The position numbers were made by a program, and so were the translations under genes. Below, piece after piece: positions 7,971-45,023 of a DNA stretch of 64,000 bases (position 1 is the first letter of the stretch; the number at the start of each line of letters is the position of its first letter). Below the pieces are notes generated by a model that made no database searches, was not told where the DNA came from, and saw only the letters and a list, made by a program, of their open reading frames with translations. This DNA comes from Gracilaria vermiculophylla (lineage: Eukaryota; Rhodophyta; Florideophyceae; Gracilariales; Gracilariaceae). The stretch covers positions 114,469 through 178,468 of the forward strand of contig JAHNZQ020003148.1 in NCBI GenBank assembly GCA_019155205.2. The letters run 5' to 3'.

Positions 7971-8902
7971 TCATAACGACCACATTAACTCATTAGAAAA
8001 GAAGCCTCTGAAGCTTGCTGTTACCTTCCAGAATGGCCTATCGTACATGGCAGCCGACGATGGCCCCACGGAATTGCCAGACTGCCTCACTATTGATATT
8101 GGAAAGGACTCCGACGAGTCTATCTCGAAGGAAATCAACAAAATTGACGGTGAAGCTGGGGAGAATGAAATCTCCGAAATTTGGTTGCGCCACATAACCG
8201 TTATGCTCCAAGAGTATCGCGACGTTTTTCGAATAAAGCTTGGCAGTGATGCTCCCGGAGACGTTCTGTCTCTTGTGATAACGCCAATCAAATATGCGAA
8301 ACCGCAGTGCCCCTTGCAGCGTCGATACATTTTACGGTAACAGTAGATCCTCTTCAGTACCATTAAGGAGCTCGAAGCAGTCGGGGCTATTATCATCCGC
8401 GTGCTAGGCAAGTCTGGGTCTAACGGTGCCTAAGCCAGGCACGAACCAGGTGCGGTTGACTGTCGATCTGCGAAAAACTAATGTGAAAATCGTGGAATTC
8501 ACCTCAGCAATGCCTTGTCTGAACTCGAAATACAAGAACGTCACCATAAGTAATTATTTTGCCAATATTGACCTCACGCACGGTTACTGGCAGGTCCCTC
8601 TCTCTCCGGAGTCGCAAGAGATGATGTTCATCCAGACATCCATCTTCGTCTATTCTTACCGCCGCTGGTTGCAGGGCGGCAGTAAATCTGGAACCCATTT
8701 CCTAGCCATACTTCAACTGCAGCTCGATGAACACATAGAAAAAATGATGCAATCGATCGCAGATATCTTATTTTATGCAAAGGACGAGACAAAACTCCAT
8801 GACTGTATCGGATCCTTTTTCCGCATTTGTAGCGAAATCGGACTGAAGTTACACGAAGAGATATCCACTATGTTTTTAAAATGTCCTGTTTTGCTGCCAT
8901 AG
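7885..8902 (+). pseudogene. Reverse transcriptase, Gypsy, broken
   Basis: Two frames make up the domain. 7885-8340 ends with the usual lead-in to the RT (MLQEYRDVFRIKLG, then PLQRRY). 8426-8902 contains VDLRKTN, FANIDLTHGYWQVPLSPESQ (first catalytic aspartate in IDLTHGYW), LQGGSKSGTHF and the palm block IADILFYAKDETKLHDCI. The YVDD-type box is damaged (I-A-D instead of D-D), so the enzyme would be dead. Wording such as WQVPLSPESQ, FYAKDETKL and SEIGLKL resembles Gypsy polyproteins known from oomycetes more than the two chromoviruses elsewhere in this window. Confidence 0.75.
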
Positions 8903-33699: not shown

Positions 33700-34529
33700 T
33701 TGGAGTGCTCTAAACCTGGAGGAAATTACAGTGGAATTCCTGAGGTGATGGCTCTTGTTGAGGAGGAGAAAGAAGTTCTCCGCATCACTGTGGTGGAGTT
33801 CTGGAAGAAACAGAGTACGCGTGAGTACTGCAAGGAGTGTCTTGCCACGGTGGGGAGTTTGACATCGTCATTCGACGTCGACCGAGACGGCGTGCTTGTA
33901 CGCCGCACCCCCCTGGATGGGGCTCTCCAAAAGCTGGTCCCGCCGAAGCTACAGGCGGGAGTGTTGTATCTCTCGCACTATCCTCGCCTTGCTGGGCACC
34001 CCGGTGGATCTCGGATGTATTTCACCATGCGGAGGGAGTTCTGTTTGCCGAACATGGCTTACGCCTCCTTCCAAACGGTGGCGGATTGCTACTCCTGCGC
34101 TTCTGCTAGGGGGAATATACGGAAACACCGGATGCCACTCACGCTGTTCCCACGTTCAGGACCGTTGGAGTTTGTGGCCATGGACTGCTTAGATCCTCTC
34201 CCCAAAACGGAGCGAGAGCACCAATTTATCCTCGTGATCACAGACCGCTTTTCCAAGATCACGCGTGCTGTCCCCCTCCGGAGCACTAGTGCAGCAGTGA
34301 TTGCCGACGCCTTTCTGGAGCATTTGGTTTACACTTACGGGATACCATTGTACCTCCTAACGGACAATGGCCCCCAGTTCGCGGCGAAACTCTTCAGCTC
34401 CGTCTCCGGAATGCTGGAGAAGAAGCAGTTGTTTACAACTGCCTATCACCCCCAGAAAAACGGACAGGCGAAAAGGTTCAACAAGACCATCGCCTCGAGG
34501 CTGAAGCACTACATCGCTGACCTCCAGAA
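33700..34529 (+). pseudogene. Integrase, family A, cut by assembly gap
   Basis: Open to the gap. Contains the zinc-binding H-H-C-C region (LSHYPRLAGHPGGSRM, then VADCYSCASARGNIRKH), the core with the first aspartate (VAMDCLDPLPKTE, QFILVITDRFSKITRAVPL), STSAAVIADAFLEHLVYTYG, the second aspartate (LLTDNGPQFAAKLF) and YHPQKNGQAKRFNKTIASRL. In the last box the family has E before R-F-N; here it is K (codon aaa), so the third catalytic residue is lost. The C-terminal part lies in or beyond the gap. Confidence 0.85.
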
Positions 34530-34629
34530 NNNNNNNNNNNNNNNNNNNNNNNNNNNNNNNNNNNNNNNNNNNNNNNNNNNNNNNNNNNNNNNNNNNNNNN
34601 NNNNNNNNNNNNNNNNNNNNNNNNNNNNN
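34530..34629. other. Assembly gap (100 N)
   Basis: Exactly 100 undetermined bases, a conventional size for a gap of unknown length. Sequence after it does not continue the integrase, so an unknown amount is missing or two contigs were joined by scaffolding. Confidence 0.95.
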
Positions 34630-35108
34630 ACACATTGCTGTATGGACACGAGTGGTGGCGGAATACAGAGAGTGTAAGGTGGTTGAGTGAATTTGTGCAC
34701 TGTGACGGTCTCGTGAGTGTACGGAACTGTCATGCCTTGTTGTGCCTTGCTGTTGTCAGCATTATTGAATTGTGGCTATTACATTTATGTCATGCTACAA
34801 TATGATTGGTAGTATTGATTGTCTCGCCTTTGTAGTGTAATTTCTGATGGAACCTAGTCGGTGCGACTGAACCACTATATAAGTCGTGGTCGAGGCACCT
34901 CCAAGTAAATCCAAGCCAGAGCTGGCGAACATTCTAAATATCCCTCTAACTTTCCCTTGCCCCTCTGACCTCCAATACTGCCAGGATCGCATACTCGAAT
35001 TTGAAGAATCGACGAGGACGTCTGATTCAAAAAGGGGGTGAATGTAATATAGTATTAAGCTACTCATTTTAGACTACTGCTAGCCACGACCGCTTATTTC
35101 AATTCATA
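34630..35108 (+). other. Possible retroelement 3' end: promoter-like box, polypurine tract, LTR start
   Basis: ctatataagtcgtgg near 34,875 has a TATA-like core. At 35,029-35,042 aaaaagggggtgaa looks like a polypurine tract and is followed at 35,043 by tgtaatatag, a plausible LTR start. No second copy of this LTR is in the window, so the call is tentative. The sequence is interrupted at 35,107 by a Tc1-type element. Confidence 0.35.
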
Positions 35109-39091: not shown

Positions 39092-40306
39092 ATGATTAGA
39101 CTGGCGATCCATCTATTTGTGCTCATCTTGTGTATAGCCTTGGCTTCTGCCCAAGTAGAACGCCCTGATGATGATGTTGCGCCAGCACCCCCATCGATTG
39201 GAGCCGATGTTCCGCTGACGTATTTTGGACCCGCACCTTCTCAGGTTGATCGACGACTGATAGGCCCAGTTCAACTTCTCAAGTCAGGGGTTATTAATTT
39301 TGATGAAGGAACGATCACCATCCCTCTTTACAAGGGTAGGTACTACGATAATACCACCCATTATTACATTCTGACAGATACGACGGATCCAGCTAACGCT
39401 GCTGCTCTTGGACTCAATCATGCTGCCAAACTCGAGTACATCACTCCGGAATCCGGAGCTACAGCCGATCTTTCTCCAAAAGGGATACTTGTCAACAGAA
39501 CTGGAAAAATTGACTTTTCTCCCAATCGAATTCTTCAACCGGGTCCAGATTCGGCTCCGTTCCCGCCAACCGAGTTTGGTGCTCCTCAGGTGGGCGACAA
39601 ACTTTATTCTCCGTACGTGCGTATCTCGAACGCCGGTAGCCGTTTGTACAATGCCCCCATCGTTGCCGATGGAATGAACTCTGAGGAGCTCGATGAGTAC
39701 TGTGAGGGTATTCCAGAGAACAGCACAGAGGCGTATGATCATATTCACAGCAAAGTCGTGGCTATTTGCCCCAGTGAGGCAACCGTAACTGTGAAACTGA
39801 CACCTGGGTTCAGTTTCTCAAAGCCAGTGCTGTATTTGTCAATGGATGCTTCAGCTGCGCTTCCGGCTGCTATGGAAGACACCACCCTCGCTCCCCGACT
39901 AGCCACGTTGCTTGTGGGAACAGATGATTCAGCCTTCTCCCCTGTTGAAAGGCTCTTTGCGGTGATCAACGGTTTCACCAATCGTGATTTGGCACCCGGT
40001 GCTCCTCAGAATGAAACAGTTCATCCAAGCCGTCAAGGTTTCTTTTCGGCGCTTTTCGAAGAGGGTAGCCCTCTCAACGTTTTGGGCGGCATTCCAACGG
40101 TAGCCACCGATTACTCTCCCGCTTGGGATCTAAACGTTGGTGAGTGGACCCGGTACTCTGTGGAGAACGGTATTCGGGATCGCCTAATTGAAGAGTTTCA
40201 AGTGCTTGGCTTTGTGGAACGTGGGTACATGACAGGCCCCGGAAATTCTACCTATGGAAGTAGTGGATTCATTGTGAATTGCCCAATTGTACACAGGTTT
40301 CTGTAG
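39092..40306 (+). CDS. Secreted protein of an uncharacterised family, 404 aa
   Basis: A complete single-exon gene. Residues 1-20 form a clear signal peptide (hydrophobic LFVLILCIALASA with likely cleavage before Q21). An acidic/proline-rich stretch follows (23-50). The mature protein has a conserved-looking core at 57-115 (GPVQLLKSGVINFDEGTITI, then ILTDTTDPANAAALGLNHA). I recall similar wording in uncharacterised secreted proteins of fungi and bacteria, but no function is known to me. Five N-glycosylation sequons (N87, N135, N210, N307, N385) and three mature cysteines (204, 226, 397) fit an extracellular protein. There is no transmembrane segment after the signal and no GPI-type tail. ATG context is acaacATGA. 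A TATA box lies upstream. Neighbours are not functionally related as far as I can see. Confidence 0.85.
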   Translation: MIRLAIHLFVLILCIALASAQVERPDDDVAPAPPSIGADVPLTYFGPAPSQVDRRLIGPVQLLKSGVINFDEGTITIPLYKGRYYDNTTHYYILTDTTDPANAAALGLNHAAKLEYITPESGATADLSPKGILVNRTGKIDFSPNRILQPGPDSAPFPPTEFGAPQVGDKLYSPYVRISNAGSRLYNAPIVADGMNSEELDEYCEGIPENSTEAYDHIHSKVVAICPSEATVTVKLTPGFSFSKPVLYLSMDASAALPAAMEDTTLAPRLATLLVGTDDSAFSPVERLFAVINGFTNRDLAPGAPQNETVHPSRQGFFSALFEEGSPLNVLGGIPTVATDYSPAWDLNVGEWTRYSVENGIRDRLIEEFQVLGFVERGYMTGPGNSTYGSSGFIVNCPIVHRFL

Positions 40307-40670: not shown

Positions 40671-42624
40671 TTGTTTGTCTCACGAAGGTATAAAGGGTAA
40701 TTGCAGGACGAGGGCAGTTGAACGTATCCTACCATCCATAATCTGGACGAATTCTAAAACTTCAAGAAAGTAAAAAAAGATAATGACCAATTTTTTTTGT
40801 TCATATATCGCATCAATTTCAATACAACCACATTGCTGCGCATGTTTTTCCATGAACCACAGGTCAAATCGAGAACCGAATTGAGGAGACAAAATCGAAC
40901 TCAACTGGTTGCGTCGCGGCGATTTCTTTGGAGTACGAAGCCGAGTCCAAACGGCTCTCAATGATTATTTTCCCTAAACCTGTTCAAATATAAGAAATGT
41001 GGAGATCATATATCCTGAACTTTGCTGTCAGTCTTTGCAGTGAAGGAAAGCAAATAAAGGTGTCTCTTCCTCCTGTACAAAAAATTTGCAACAAATCTGA
41101 AGGATTCATGAAAGATAATAAAAGCAATTTGAAAAACGAATAGTGTATTTTTGCGAGGTCAATGTGTTCTCACAACTCTTCAACGATACTGCTCCTTGTA
41201 TGGCAACAATGATACGTTGACGCCGAGATGCGAACATAAGAAACATACCTAGCTGGCGGAAAAAAGCCTAGCAATGTCTGTTTGATTACGACTTATGCAT
41301 CAAGGACTGTCGAAAAGACCGACAAGTTACGTACCCTCTGGCCTCATTGCTCTTTAGCAGTGTGACGTTTTTCTGTTAAACGTTAAAACTAATTATTTTA
41401 ATGCTCCAGCATCGGCTAATGAAGTCTGGTCAAGGTTTCGTACTGAGACTTGACGAGAACTGTCGGCATCTTCGTTGTCGTGCTGTGAAAGGATGTCGAC
41501 TAATTTGGTAGGTGCTTGCCGATGAAAGAAAAAGGCGCCAAAACGCGATCTTCAAGGGGCAAACCTGGTCTCAAAGCTTTTGTCTTATCAAAACCCCATC
41601 TCTGCATGTTTTTGCCTTGACACTGATTCCTTAGCTTTTCTTTCGGAAAATTTTTAGTCGTCACAGGCCTCTTTATCGCGCGAGTCAACGTCTTGTGCCC
41701 CACTATAAAGTAGCAATACTGTGCGAAGTTCGTACTCAATTCGCAGATACGTTGTAGGCGCTTTGTGATGGCATTTCTGTAATAAAAAATTGTTGGTCTC
41801 GAAGTTCATGTGGTATCGCGGAGGACATGCAGCACTGAAAGAAAGTCGTTTCGACCGGACTACTGCCTTCGGCTTTCTTGTATGTACCGGATCTTTGCTT
41901 TTCTTAAAACGTTATTCTTTCTCACAAAACGAAGCCCTTCAAACGGCGCGGCTGCACGATACAGTACTTCGGCTACAATACTTGACCGTAAATACGAAAC
42001 ATACGCCAAAAACAACCGGCTTTGAAATTGATTGTGTGAGTGAGAAACGCCCACTGCTGCTATTCGGCCTTCATAACGTCCAGCCACTAAGGAGGGACGA
42101 AGCACAACTGCTGTACTGCAAGCGGTAGTCGGGCAAAACACGCGACAGTTCGTACAGTCACATCTTTTAGTGAATATGACAACCACAGCGAGGACCATAC
42201 TGAACCTTTCGTTCTTGAAACCGTTCTTGAGTTGCTGTCAATGGTTGGAAACGGCTCTGGTCAACATTCTTAAGACGCATTGCATTGTTGACGGCAATCC
42301 ATGTCTCGCCAGTTCTGTGGATAACGAAAAAATTTTGCGCCGAGCTTGCCACACAGCCGTATTCGATGGCTCGTACAGTATAGAAAACCTTGCTGTTGCC
42401 TACTCACACGCTGCCACGCAAACACGCGTTTCTACGATTAATTCCTGAACACAGAATATTTCGCTTGAACTCCCCCTCAAGCACATCTCCGCGGTTCATA
42501 AAGGGATCACTTTCGCTCCGTCTCCAGTAATTGCTGACGAGTGTCCTCCTTCTCTACTTCACTCGCTTTCCATCAGATATCAGGAAGTTTCGAGAACAAC
42601 GTTCGCACCCGATTGAACTTCAAA
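40671..42624. other. Intergenic, no recognised gene
   Basis: Frames at 41,500-41,739 (minus), 41,790-42,128 (plus), 41,860-42,198 (minus) and 42,170-42,448 (plus) overlap in conflicting frames and show no domain. 42,480-42,624 would hold the promoter and leader of the next gene; cataaaggg at 42,498 is a weak TATA-like candidate. Confidence 0.45.
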
Positions 42625-43305
42625 ATGGAGATGGTCGATCCTATGTTGGTTGCGAAATTTCGCGCCAACGTCACAGTGAAAGATAGGAGATATCACTTCA
42701 ACAAATACAAGCAGTGTTTTGTTGGAAGTGAAGCGGTAGACTGGCTCGTCGACTCTGGACATGCGAAGACCCGGAAGGCTGCGGTTGATGTTGGTGAGAG
42801 GATGCGCCACATGGGACTCTTCGACCACGTCGTCTTTGAACATGGTTTTGAAGATAAAAACTACTTTTACTCCTTCAACGACGACGAACCGTTGGCCATG
42901 GATGACCTTCCAGATATGAGCCAGCGCAAGGGAATTGCCCTTATAGCTCACAACAACCTTAAGTCCACTCTTCTCGAATGGGCTCAAAAGCACAAGGACG
43001 CCCTATCGAAGCACAATCTGGTGGCCACGGGAACCACCGGGTCGTTGATATCAGAACATACTGGCCTTGATGTTCGGCTCATGAACAGTGGGCCTCTTGG
43101 TGGTGACCAGCAAATTGGGGCTCTCGTAGCTGAGCAAAGCATCAGCGTTCTGATTTTTTTCTGGGACCCCCTCACAGCTCAACCTCACGAAAGCGATGTC
43201 AAGGCCTTACTTCGCCTCGCAGTTCTTTGCAATGCCGCCATTGCGATGAATGTCCTCACTGCTGATCTCCTCATGTCTGCAATTTCGGATTCGAAAAAGA
43301 AGTAA
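42625..43305 (+). CDS. DEP domain-methylglyoxal synthase fusion, 226 aa
   Basis: Methylglyoxal synthase converts dihydroxyacetone phosphate to methylglyoxal and phosphate, a glycolytic bypass known mainly from bacteria. The C-terminal two thirds aligns with the bacterial enzyme: GIALIAHNNLKSTLLEW, ATGTTGSLI, MNSGPLGGDQQIGALV, SVLIFFWDPL, PHESDVKALLRLA and MNVLTADLLM. Numbering from this ATG, equivalents of the E. coli residues are H109 (H19), K113 (K23), T137/T138 (T47/T48), S155 and G156, D161 (D71, the catalytic base), D181 (D91), H188 (H98) and D191 (D101). The residue matching E. coli D20 is N110. Before it, residues 7-85 form a DEP domain (LVAKFRANVTVKDRRYHFNK, VGSEAVDWLVDSG, ERMRHMGLFDHV, DKNYFYSFND). 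DEP domains commonly mediate membrane or receptor association. The frame is open 28 codons further upstream without an ATG; the chosen ATG has a good context (caaaATGG). No introns and no obvious transit peptide. I know of no described DEP fusion to this enzyme. Confidence 0.88.
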   Translation: MEMVDPMLVAKFRANVTVKDRRYHFNKYKQCFVGSEAVDWLVDSGHAKTRKAAVDVGERMRHMGLFDHVVFEHGFEDKNYFYSFNDDEPLAMDDLPDMSQRKGIALIAHNNLKSTLLEWAQKHKDALSKHNLVATGTTGSLISEHTGLDVRLMNSGPLGGDQQIGALVAEQSISVLIFFWDPLTAQPHESDVKALLRLAVLCNAAIAMNVLTADLLMSAISDSKKK

Positions 43306-43733
43306 CTGGCTTGTGAAGTACTGGGTGTGCCGCGTACCACGTTCGACCACAAACCAAGATCTATAGAAAAGGCATGAACCAAGCCAGAGAAAAGCGAACC
43401 AGTGATTCTCGAGGATTGGACGCTTCGCGCCTCTGGGATTGGACGCTTCGCGCCTCTGGTTATTCATGAAGTGTACAAATATATCGAGAAAGTATAGTCG
43501 CTTTTCACGTTAAAAGCCGAAAGAAATGGCAATTCTAATAAGCTTCGTTATAAACAATGTCGTGCATCTTTCCGGTGGTCTATTCTGTTGCTTGAGGCTT
43601 TGTCTTTGTCATTAACGTAGGGTTGTTTGAGTGGTGCTCCGCAACTCATTGTCAATTTCAGAAGTAAGGAGGATGATCGGACAGATATATAACACATCAG
43701 ACATTTTTCATGCATTTGTGCACAGTCATTCTT
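43306..43733. other. Convergent 3' region between two genes
   Basis: The DEP-synthase gene (plus) and the coiled-coil gene (minus) converge here, about 430 bp apart. Contains a 23-bp tandem duplication. Confidence 0.5.
43414..43459 (+). repeat. 23-bp perfect tandem duplication
   Basis: gattggacgcttcgcgcctctgg without spacer occurs at 43,414-43,436 and again at 43,437-43,459 with no mismatch, about 110 bases after the stop of the DEP-synthase gene. Perfect identity implies a recent duplication or slippage event. Confidence 0.9.
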
Positions 43734-45023
43734 CTATGCGACCTCGAGATTAGAATTGTGTACAGCTAACGATGAGCGTTTGTTTCCAAGCTTCAAGACA
43801 TACATTCTCCTAGCTTGTGTTTCCGCCTCCATTAAGGACAACATCTTGAGACAAGAATTGAGATGTGCTGCAACATCTTCCCGCCATTTAGGATTATACG
43901 TCGCGGTTTTCGCAAATTTCAGTTCACCACGCTCAATGGTCGCTTTCAAGTCCTCATATATTTTCGATTCCGCCGCGAAGAACCGCATCCCGTCCTCCAT
44001 CAATTTGTTAGCCTGATCCCAAGTATCTGCCTTTTCCATCTCTGCCTTCAATGCAGCCTTTATCCCCTCTCTGTCACTGAGATAATCGTTTGCCTTCCTG
44101 AGGGCTGATTCCAACTCAACAGCTTTCTGAGAAACAAGCCTATCCGCCTCCTCCCGGAGCCCGCGCTCCTTGGCTAGAATGTGCTCGGTCTCACGAGCAA
44201 GTTGCTCAGTCCTCATTAATGCGTCTTCCTTCTTCTTCGCGCGGGTTTTTTCTTTGTCAAGTGAAGTCTTAGCTTCCGTTAACGCCGCTTGAATGACTTC
44301 TTTTTCCATCTGAAGTCCATCCGATCTAATTTGAATTTCGTTGATTTGTCTTTGAGATGCTTCAAATCGCCTATTGGCTTCGTCTTTTTCTCGCCTGGCT
44401 TCCTCTGCAACGTGCTTGTTTTCGATGGCCTTGGTTCTCTCCACTTGCAACTCCTTTCTGAGCGCGCCAAGCTTCTTGTTATACTCGTCCTTTCGTTGCT
44501 GCAATTCGTTCGCCTTCTTCGTAAAGTCGCTCGATAAGTTTTCGTAATCACGCCCCCTCTGCTCAGCTTTGATTGTTAACTCATCGTTTTCTTGTCTCAT
44601 CTGATTCACTTCAGACAGCAACTTCTCGTAGTTATCCCTGGCTTCGTTGAGTTCGCCTTTCAGTATCGCTATTTTCTTGTCAGGATGCATGATATCTGAA
44701 TGTACATTTGAATTCCTTGAACCTTCACTGCTATTGTCATAGAAAGAATCGGGTTGCACGTACGACAAGGAGTCTCGCTTTCGCCAAGCGACTCTTTCCC
44801 AATGCTTCCGTTCAATCTTAAAATTAAAGTTCTCGTTTTCCATTTTCCGCATGCGAGAATCTGTCTCGCGGACCGAAGAAACCATGGGCGGTCTGGAGTG
44901 CGATTCGGAGATCATTGTTGTGGGCTGGTGAGGCGGAAGAATGGAGAGTTGTGAGGAAGTCGTGACGGGCGGCAGACAAGGTAGACGAGATACAATGAGC
45001 ATGCCGCCAAGCTGGTGCCGCAA
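43734..45023 (-). CDS. Long coiled-coil protein, 429 aa
   Basis: A complete single open frame. Residues 1-55 are proline/serine rich and likely disordered. Residues 57-78 (DSRMRKMENENFNFKIERKH) vaguely resemble the short N-terminal motif of centrosomin/Mto1-type proteins (E-N-F-x-L-K), which would suggest a centrosome or spindle role; this is weak. From about 115 to 345 the sequence is a nearly continuous coiled coil dominated by E, K, R and Q (KKIAILKGELNEARDNYEKL and so on). The last 80 residues (TWDQANKLMEDGMRFFAAES, then FAKTATYNPKWREDVAAHL) are helical and more conserved in appearance. The first ATG may not be the true start: M8, M37 and M47 are alternatives. No membrane segment. Function unknown; a cytoskeletal or scaffold role is the generic expectation. 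Confidence 0.75.
   Translation of the reverse strand: MRHQLGGMLIVSRLPCLPPVTTSSQLSILPPHQPTTMISESHSRPPMVSSVRETDSRMRKMENENFNFKIERKHWERVAWRKRDSLSYVQPDSFYDNSSEGSRNSNVHSDIMHPDKKIAILKGELNEARDNYEKLLSEVNQMRQENDELTIKAEQRGRDYENLSSDFTKKANELQQRKDEYNKKLGALRKELQVERTKAIENKHVAEEARREKDEANRRFEASQRQINEIQIRSDGLQMEKEVIQAALTEAKTSLDKEKTRAKKKEDALMRTEQLARETEHILAKERGLREEADRLVSQKAVELESALRKANDYLSDREGIKAALKAEMEKADTWDQANKLMEDGMRFFAAESKIYEDLKATIERGELKFAKTATYNPKWREDVAAHLNSCLKMLSLMEAETQARRMYVLKLGNKRSSLAVHNSNLEVA

What the first reader, a model, noticed from the sequence alone, without database searches (positions are those of the whole stretch)
42625..43305. Methylglyoxal synthase fused to a DEP domain in a eukaryotic genome
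Seen: residues 7-85 match a DEP domain and residues about 102-226 match the whole of bacterial methylglyoxal synthase, with equivalents of E. coli H19, K23, D71, D91, H98 and D101 all present and only the D20 position changed (to N110). Established: the enzyme makes toxic methylglyoxal from dihydroxyacetone phosphate and is mainly bacterial. Inference: a horizontally acquired enzyme has been joined to a signalling/membrane-association module, so methylglyoxal production might be switched or localised by membrane signals or phosphate status. I know of no description of such a fusion.
Basis: partly seen in the sequence, partly recalled or inferred. Interest (0 to 1): 0.88.

Follow-up and report, generated by a model that had tools for sequence, protein, structure and literature searches.

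The report
Red-algal methylglyoxal synthase with DEP domain
A red seaweed genome encodes a bacterial-type enzyme predicted to make the reactive compound methylglyoxal, joined to a eukaryotic signalling domain; related joined proteins exist in other red seaweeds, and what the joined part does has not been tested.

Summary
Window 42625-43305 (+) is one uninterrupted 226-residue ORF: a DEP domain (Pfam E=3e-22), then a methylglyoxal synthase (MGS) that passes NCBI's equivalog cut-off (169 bits; cut-off 147). The genome is that of a gracilariacean red alga; the gene lies on a 1.73 Mb contig. Relatives: Gracilaria domingensis, Agarophyton chilense, Gracilariopsis chorda and 11 unnamed database proteins (15 with the window's, two N-terminally short). 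Their synthase domains form one clade (support 100/95) apart from 47 non-fused ones, so one bacterial acquisition and one fusion is the simplest history; the donor is unresolved. H19, K23, D71, D91, H98, D101 and the phosphate loop are kept in 15 of 15. Two things differ from 171 non-fused relatives: D20 is N in 13 of 15 fusions (D in 171 of 171), and the C-terminal tail is short in all 15, so "the whole of MGS" is slightly too strong. I think it is an active synthase that DEP places at a membrane or partner; activity and DEP function are inference. The genome has a second DEP-metabolic enzyme fusion (DEP-disulfide oxidoreductase), a family also present in diatoms. The searched open-access library held no paper on DEP-MGS.

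The parts
42625..43305 (+). single-exon coding sequence of the DEP-MGS fusion, 226 aa plus stop
   Evidence: near-full-length relatives
42670..42876 (+). DEP domain, residues 16-84
   Evidence: Pfam PF00610; fold
42877..42930 (+). linker, residues 85-102, variable in length (13-21 aa) and sequence among the 15 fusions
   Evidence: pLDDT 59 for residues 91-100
42925..43287 (+). methylglyoxal synthase domain, residues 101-221
   Evidence: TIGR00160; PDB matches
42949..42963 (+). active-site stretch H109 (E. coli H19), N110 (D20), K113 (K23)
43105..43107 (+). D161, equivalent of the catalytic base D71
43165..43197 (+). D181, H188 and D191, equivalents of D91, H98 and D101
43252..43302 (+). shortened C-terminal tail: 17 residues after N209 (E. 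coli N119), where E. coli has 33

Best explanation
This is a working methylglyoxal synthase of red algae. Shown by sequence: a bacterial-type mgsA domain, one clade among the fusions and with its catalytic residues kept, carries a eukaryotic DEP domain at its N-terminus through a variable linker, and the arrangement is retained across divergent homologues. Inferred from knowledge of the family (recalled): bacterial MGS is a hexamer, so each particle would display six DEP domains. Inferred: these place the enzyme, by avidity, at a cytosolic membrane face or on a membrane-bound partner, so that dihydroxyacetone phosphate is turned into methylglyoxal and phosphate there. Inferred and weaker: D20N and the short tail alter the phosphate feedback of bacterial MGS, leaving control more to DEP. 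The methylglyoxal would be removed by glyoxalases, for which the genome holds candidates. My odds by step: fusion real 0.98; enzyme active 0.8; DEP localises or regulates it 0.6; phosphate feedback changed 0.4.
For: Domain matches and equivalog cut-offs. Predicted structure with mean pLDDT 90.3; MGS and DEP structures are found in the PDB. 15 fusions, 13 near full length and 2 N-terminally short; their synthase domains are one clade, 100/95 with 47 others and 100/100 with 15 others and column 110 left out. Of 15 active-site and neighbouring positions examined, 14 are the same in 15 of 15 fusions; the exception is D20. The synthase part is better conserved than DEP in each of the 14 comparisons with the window protein, e.g. 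83% against 63% for G. chorda and 62% against 33% for P0012. Glyoxalase I-like and glyoxalase II matches in the genome. A second DEP-enzyme fusion in the genome, DEP-disulfide oxidoreductase; DEP found in 98 of the 120 listed relatives of it.
Against: No activity, localisation or expression data. D20 is changed in 13 of 15. Only 9 of 79 DEP positions are invariant in the 13 full-length fusions, against 49 of 118 synthase positions in 15, so a single DEP ligand shared by all is not obvious. How the domains sit to each other is uncertain in the model (pTM 0.63, linker pLDDT 59). Short tails alone do not go with D20N: all 171 non-fused relatives keep D20, including the 4 with tails under 20 residues. 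None of the 4 TIGR00068 glyoxalase I matches reaches that family's cut-off (best 97.7 bits of 120). Hexamer assembly was not modelled.
Confidence: 0.55

Rival explanations
1. Active synthase, but DEP is a passive N-terminal module (solubility, assembly or stability) without targeting or regulation.
For: DEP diverges faster than the synthase and keeps only 9 of 79 positions in the 13 full-length fusions.
Against: DEP is still recognised by Pfam in 13 of the 14 database fusions (the 14th, P0014, is cut short), although they differ from the window's DEP by up to two thirds; the fold is predicted with high confidence; the genome joins DEP to a second enzyme too.
Confidence: 0.25
2. A changed or silent enzyme: the pocket still binds dihydroxyacetone phosphate or phosphate, but D20N has turned it into a sensor or given it another reaction.
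For: D20 is D in 171 of 171 non-fused relatives and N in 13 of 15 fusions.
Against: D20 is not in the list of important residues quoted in PMC1877815 (H19, G66, D71, D91, H98, D101; passages), and all of those are kept in 15 of 15. Two fusions have D at 20 (P0009, P0012) and the tree needs 3 changes at this site, as for a tolerated swap. A silent pocket should drift.
Confidence: 0.15
3. Artefact: bacterial contamination, misassembly, or two neighbouring genes read as one.
For: No transcript reads could be examined.
Against: One frame without stop; 1.73 Mb contig; near-full-length relatives 72-89% identical in three other named Gracilariaceae, in separate records; similar GC in both halves, 0.48 and 0.51, within the spread of neighbouring ORFs, 0.44-0.50, or next to it.
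Confidence: 0.01

Closest known systems
Bacterial methylglyoxal synthase MgsA (TIGR00160; solved: E. coli 1b93, B. subtilis 6f2c, Thermus 2x8w)
   Same: Fold, catalytic residues, phosphate loop; 52-64% identity over the synthase part in the non-fused rows
   Different: N-terminal DEP and linker; D20 to N; tail 16 residues shorter than E. coli's; eukaryotic host
DEP domains of DEPTOR and P-Rex1
   Same: Nearest solved DEP domains by sequence (E=1.2e-27 and 2.4e-22), among the DEP hits by fold
   Different: There two DEP domains sit in large signalling proteins; here one DEP precedes a small metabolic enzyme
DEP-pyridine nucleotide-disulfide oxidoreductase of red algae and diatoms (L022 1364-3514; P0187-P0306)
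   Same: Single DEP N-terminal to a metabolic enzyme; its DEP is 48% identical to the window's, against 21-34% for the four other DEP domains of the genome
   Different: Unrelated enzyme; named rows include red algae and diatoms, whereas named DEP-MGS rows are Gracilariaceae only (3 of 14)
MGS-like domains of PurH and two carbamoyl-phosphate synthases in this genome (L001-L003)
   Same: Same Pfam family PF02142
   Different: Parts of purine and carbamoyl-phosphate enzymes; of the 4 PF02142 matches in the genome only the window's is of the mgsA kind

Membership tests
Methylglyoxal synthase (EC 4.2.3.3) | Passes the curated equivalog score | tested here: met
   169.1 bits against 146.9 (TIGR00160) and 183.4 against 84 (PRK05234); six other fusions also pass both
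Methylglyoxal synthase (EC 4.2.3.3) | H19, G66, D71, D91, H98, D101 (list quoted in PMC1877815) | tested here: met
   Kept in 15 of 15 fusions, the window's included
Methylglyoxal synthase (EC 4.2.3.3) | Phosphate-binding K23, S65 and T45-G49 (PMC7843640) | tested here: met
   K23, T45, T47, T48, G49, S65 kept in 15 of 15; the G46 equivalent G136 is invariant too
Methylglyoxal synthase (EC 4.2.3.3) | D20 (universal in the sampled relatives, not in the quoted catalytic list; I do not count it as defining) | tested here: not met
   N in the window; N in 13 and D in 2 of 15 fusions; D in 171 of 171 non-fused
Methylglyoxal synthase (EC 4.2.3.3) | C-terminal tail of E. coli length (not defining: thermophile enzymes are also shorter there, PMC7843640) | tested here: not met
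   10-24 residues after the N119 equivalent in 15 fusions; median 33, range 14-61, in 171 others
Methylglyoxal synthase (EC 4.2.3.3) | Makes methylglyoxal from dihydroxyacetone phosphate; hexamer; inhibited by phosphate | not testable with these tools
   Needs purified protein
DEP domain | Profile match over the gathering score, and DEP fold | tested here: met
   78.7 bits against 32.7; pLDDT 80-98 in the ten-residue blocks of residues 1-90; PDB DEP matches
DEP domain | Binding to a membrane, receptor or other partner | not testable with these tools
   No binding data

The most novel reading that the evidence does not exclude
Red algae have a membrane- or receptor-addressed methylglyoxal synthase: a bacterial overflow enzyme that has lost part of its phosphate feedback and is placed or gated by DEP instead, so that methylglyoxal is made on purpose and locally, as a signal, a defence compound or a phosphate-release valve. 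It would be one case of a wider algal habit of putting DEP on metabolic enzymes.
Probability: 0.3. Interest if true: 0.8.

Novelty: new variant of a known kind. Interest (0 to 1): 0.6.

Why it matters
Methylglyoxal in eukaryotes is usually taken to be an accident of glycolysis; a dedicated, retained synthase in seaweeds would mean that some make it on purpose. The DEP part would then show how a eukaryote brought a hazardous bacterial reaction under its own control, and D20N with the short tail gives a direct test of the feedback that limits the bacterial enzyme. It also bears on Gracilaria vermiculophylla, which contains the methylglyoxal-scavenging amino acid gigartinine (PMC13208526).

Tried and rejected
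Contamination or misassembly: rejected (contig size; relatives in three named Gracilariaceae).

Finding the bacterial donor: failed. In a 62-row tree the fusions are one clade but no bacterial group is its supported sister. The one scan of genome contigs used patterns from the window's own synthase and confirmed 1 relative among 71 matching stretches, an Acidimicrobiia MAG, so it is no census.

Deriving the fusion's DEP from the DEP of the disulfide oxidoreductase: not shown. Pairwise identity makes it the nearest DEP in this genome (48%), but a 52-row, 79-column tree needed 2 changes for the fusion group and 2 for the oxidoreductase group, with long branches and an unsure root.

Coupling of D20N with tail loss: not supported as a general rule. 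All 171 non-fused relatives keep D20, including 4 with tails under 20 residues. That D20 pairs with an arginine near E. coli residue 150 to pass the phosphate signal is my recollection; searches found no passage on it, and the paper that I thought most relevant is not held. A tail count mis-anchored one row (P0012) and was not used.

Distribution: 11 of the 14 database fusions have no name, so I cannot say which algae they come from, nor whether their contigs are DNA or RNA. Both searches scored only the 8000 best candidates, within 0.55-1.75 times the query length, and list 120; longer MGS fusions in other eukaryotes would be missed. Absence from other red algae is not shown.

Two extra DEP and glyoxalase checks gave context only.

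Full report
What is there. Window 42625-43305 (+) is an ATG-to-TAA reading frame of 226 residues without an internal stop. Residues 16-84 match the Pfam DEP domain (E=3.2e-22) and residues 116-200 the MGS-like domain (E=4e-15), both over the curated cut-offs. NCBIfam's two methylglyoxal synthase equivalog models also pass their cut-offs (183.4 against 84 bits; 169.1 against 146.9). The frame continues upstream only from a GTG at 42541; the ATG at 42625 is taken as the start because relatives begin near there.

Where it is. The window lies at 114469-178468 of a 1,729,393-base contig in a 44.8 Mb, 27-contig genome. The protein is 89% identical to one of Gracilaria domingensis, 88% to one of Agarophyton chilense and 72% to one of Gracilariopsis chorda, over 96-98% of its length. 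The host is therefore a gracilariacean red alga; I did not determine the species. GC of the DEP half is 0.48 and of the synthase half 0.51; three neighbouring ORFs have 0.44-0.50. The downstream neighbour, 43734-45023 on the minus strand, is convergent and unrelated.

How widespread. Two database searches gave 14 fusions besides the window's: 3 named, listed above, and 11 without a name. Thirteen of the 15 are near full length; P0013 and P0014 are N-terminally short. No other named organism appears among the fusion rows. Because candidates were capped at 8000 and limited in length, and 120 rows were listed, this is not a census, and I cannot say that other red algae lack it.

The synthase domain. 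PDB alignment to E. coli MgsA is ungapped (query 99-218 to 9-128). [quoted passage not shown] PMC7843640 (passages) adds K23, S65 and T45-G49 for the phosphate. Of 15 active-site and neighbouring positions that I tallied, 14 are the same in 15 of 15 fusions; the exception is D20, which is N in 13 and D in 2. Among the 171 non-fused relatives listed, D20 is D in 171; these are the top-scoring relatives, not a random sample. The tail after the N119 equivalent has 10-24 residues in the 15 fusions, with a median of 33 and a range of 14-61 in the 171. On a tree that leaves out this column the D/N site needs 3 changes, so it has gone back or been gained more than once.

History. In a tree of 62 synthase domains the 15 fusions are one side of a branch with support 100/95, and no bacterial group is a supported sister; a 30-row tree gives 100/100. 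The non-fused rows that carry an organism name are bacterial. One acquisition from bacteria and one joining to DEP is the simplest reading; donor and date are open.

The DEP domain. Nearest solved relatives are the DEP domains of DEPTOR and P-Rex1. In the genome six DEP matches fall in five genes: the window's, a kinase-DEP-DUF547 protein, a DEP-disulfide oxidoreductase, a two-DEP protein and one more. The oxidoreductase's DEP is the nearest to the window's, 48% against 21-34%. The DEP tree could not settle descent. DEP is less conserved than the synthase in each of the 14 comparisons: 9 of 79 DEP positions are invariant in 13 fusions, 49 of 118 synthase positions in 15.

Structure. AlphaFold2 on a 41-sequence alignment gives mean pLDDT 90.3, with the linker block at 59 and pTM 0.63, so the folds are sure and their relative placing is not. 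Foldseek finds bacterial methylglyoxal synthases (best E=7.7e-14) and DEPTOR and P-Rex1 DEP domains (1.7e-07, 3.5e-06).

Metabolic setting. The genome has 8 glyoxalase-family matches, 4 matches to the glyoxalase I model, none over its cut-off of 120 bits (best 97.7; two lie close together and look like exons of one gene), and 1 glyoxalase II match, E=3.4e-29. PF02142 matches elsewhere are PurH and two carbamoyl-phosphate synthases. PMC13208526 (abstract, passages and introduction) reports that gigartinine, isolated from Gracilaria vermiculophylla, scavenges methylglyoxal; it does not mention a synthase. The link to this gene is mine.

How it most likely works. Kept catalytic residues, slow change of the synthase part and single origin speak for an active enzyme. 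MGS is a hexamer in bacteria (recalled), so six DEP domains per particle would give avidity for a membrane or a membrane protein; DEP domains elsewhere bind acidic lipids, receptors or phosphatidic acid (recalled). D20 and the tail are where I recall the E. coli phosphate signal to run, so feedback may be changed; I could not verify this in the held papers, and the lack of any D20 change in non-fused relatives with short tails is against a simple coupling.

Known or new. MGS and DEP are well known. The combination is annotated in databases only as methylglyoxal synthase (G. domingensis, G. chorda) or unnamed product (A. chilense). No paper in the searched open-access library holds both terms; searches with eukaryote plus horizontal transfer (8 papers, listing), red alga (1, listing) and alga (29 papers, 25 listed) showed no title or abstract start on a seaweed synthase. 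Subscription journals and preprints were not searchable. I file it as a new variant of a known enzyme.

Noticed in passing
L022 1364-3514 (-), G000:C9 near 374700: DEP joined to a pyridine nucleotide-disulfide oxidoreductase (716 aa). 98 of the 120 listed relatives have DEP; named rows include Gracilaria domingensis, Agarophyton chilense, Hildenbrandia rubra and diatoms such as Seminavis robusta and Nitzschia inconspicua. A DEP-redox enzyme family whose function I did not look up.
   Followed up: partly
L005 331-2682 (+), G000:C9 near 982300: Protein kinase, DEP and DUF547 in one 783-aa frame.
   Followed up: no
L008 817-1800 (-), G000:C11 near 1200500: Protein with two DEP domains in a row, no other domain found in this frame.
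   Followed up: no
window 33700-34677 (+): ORF with integrase core and zinc-binding domains (rve, Integrase_H2C2), probably a retroelement piece.
   Followed up: no
window 39092-40306 (+): 404-aa ORF with a DUF7482 match just over its cut-off (30.8 against 27.5 bits) and a hydrophobic start that looks like a signal peptide.
   Followed up: no
window 43414-43459: A 23-base unit occurs twice head to tail in the 3' flank of the fusion gene (read).
   Followed up: no
L023 841-1918 (+), G000:C11 near 1165000: Two glyoxalase I-like stretches about 300 bases apart (TIGR00068 97.7 and 89.1 bits, below cut-off), perhaps exons of a tandem-domain glyoxalase I.
   Followed up: partly
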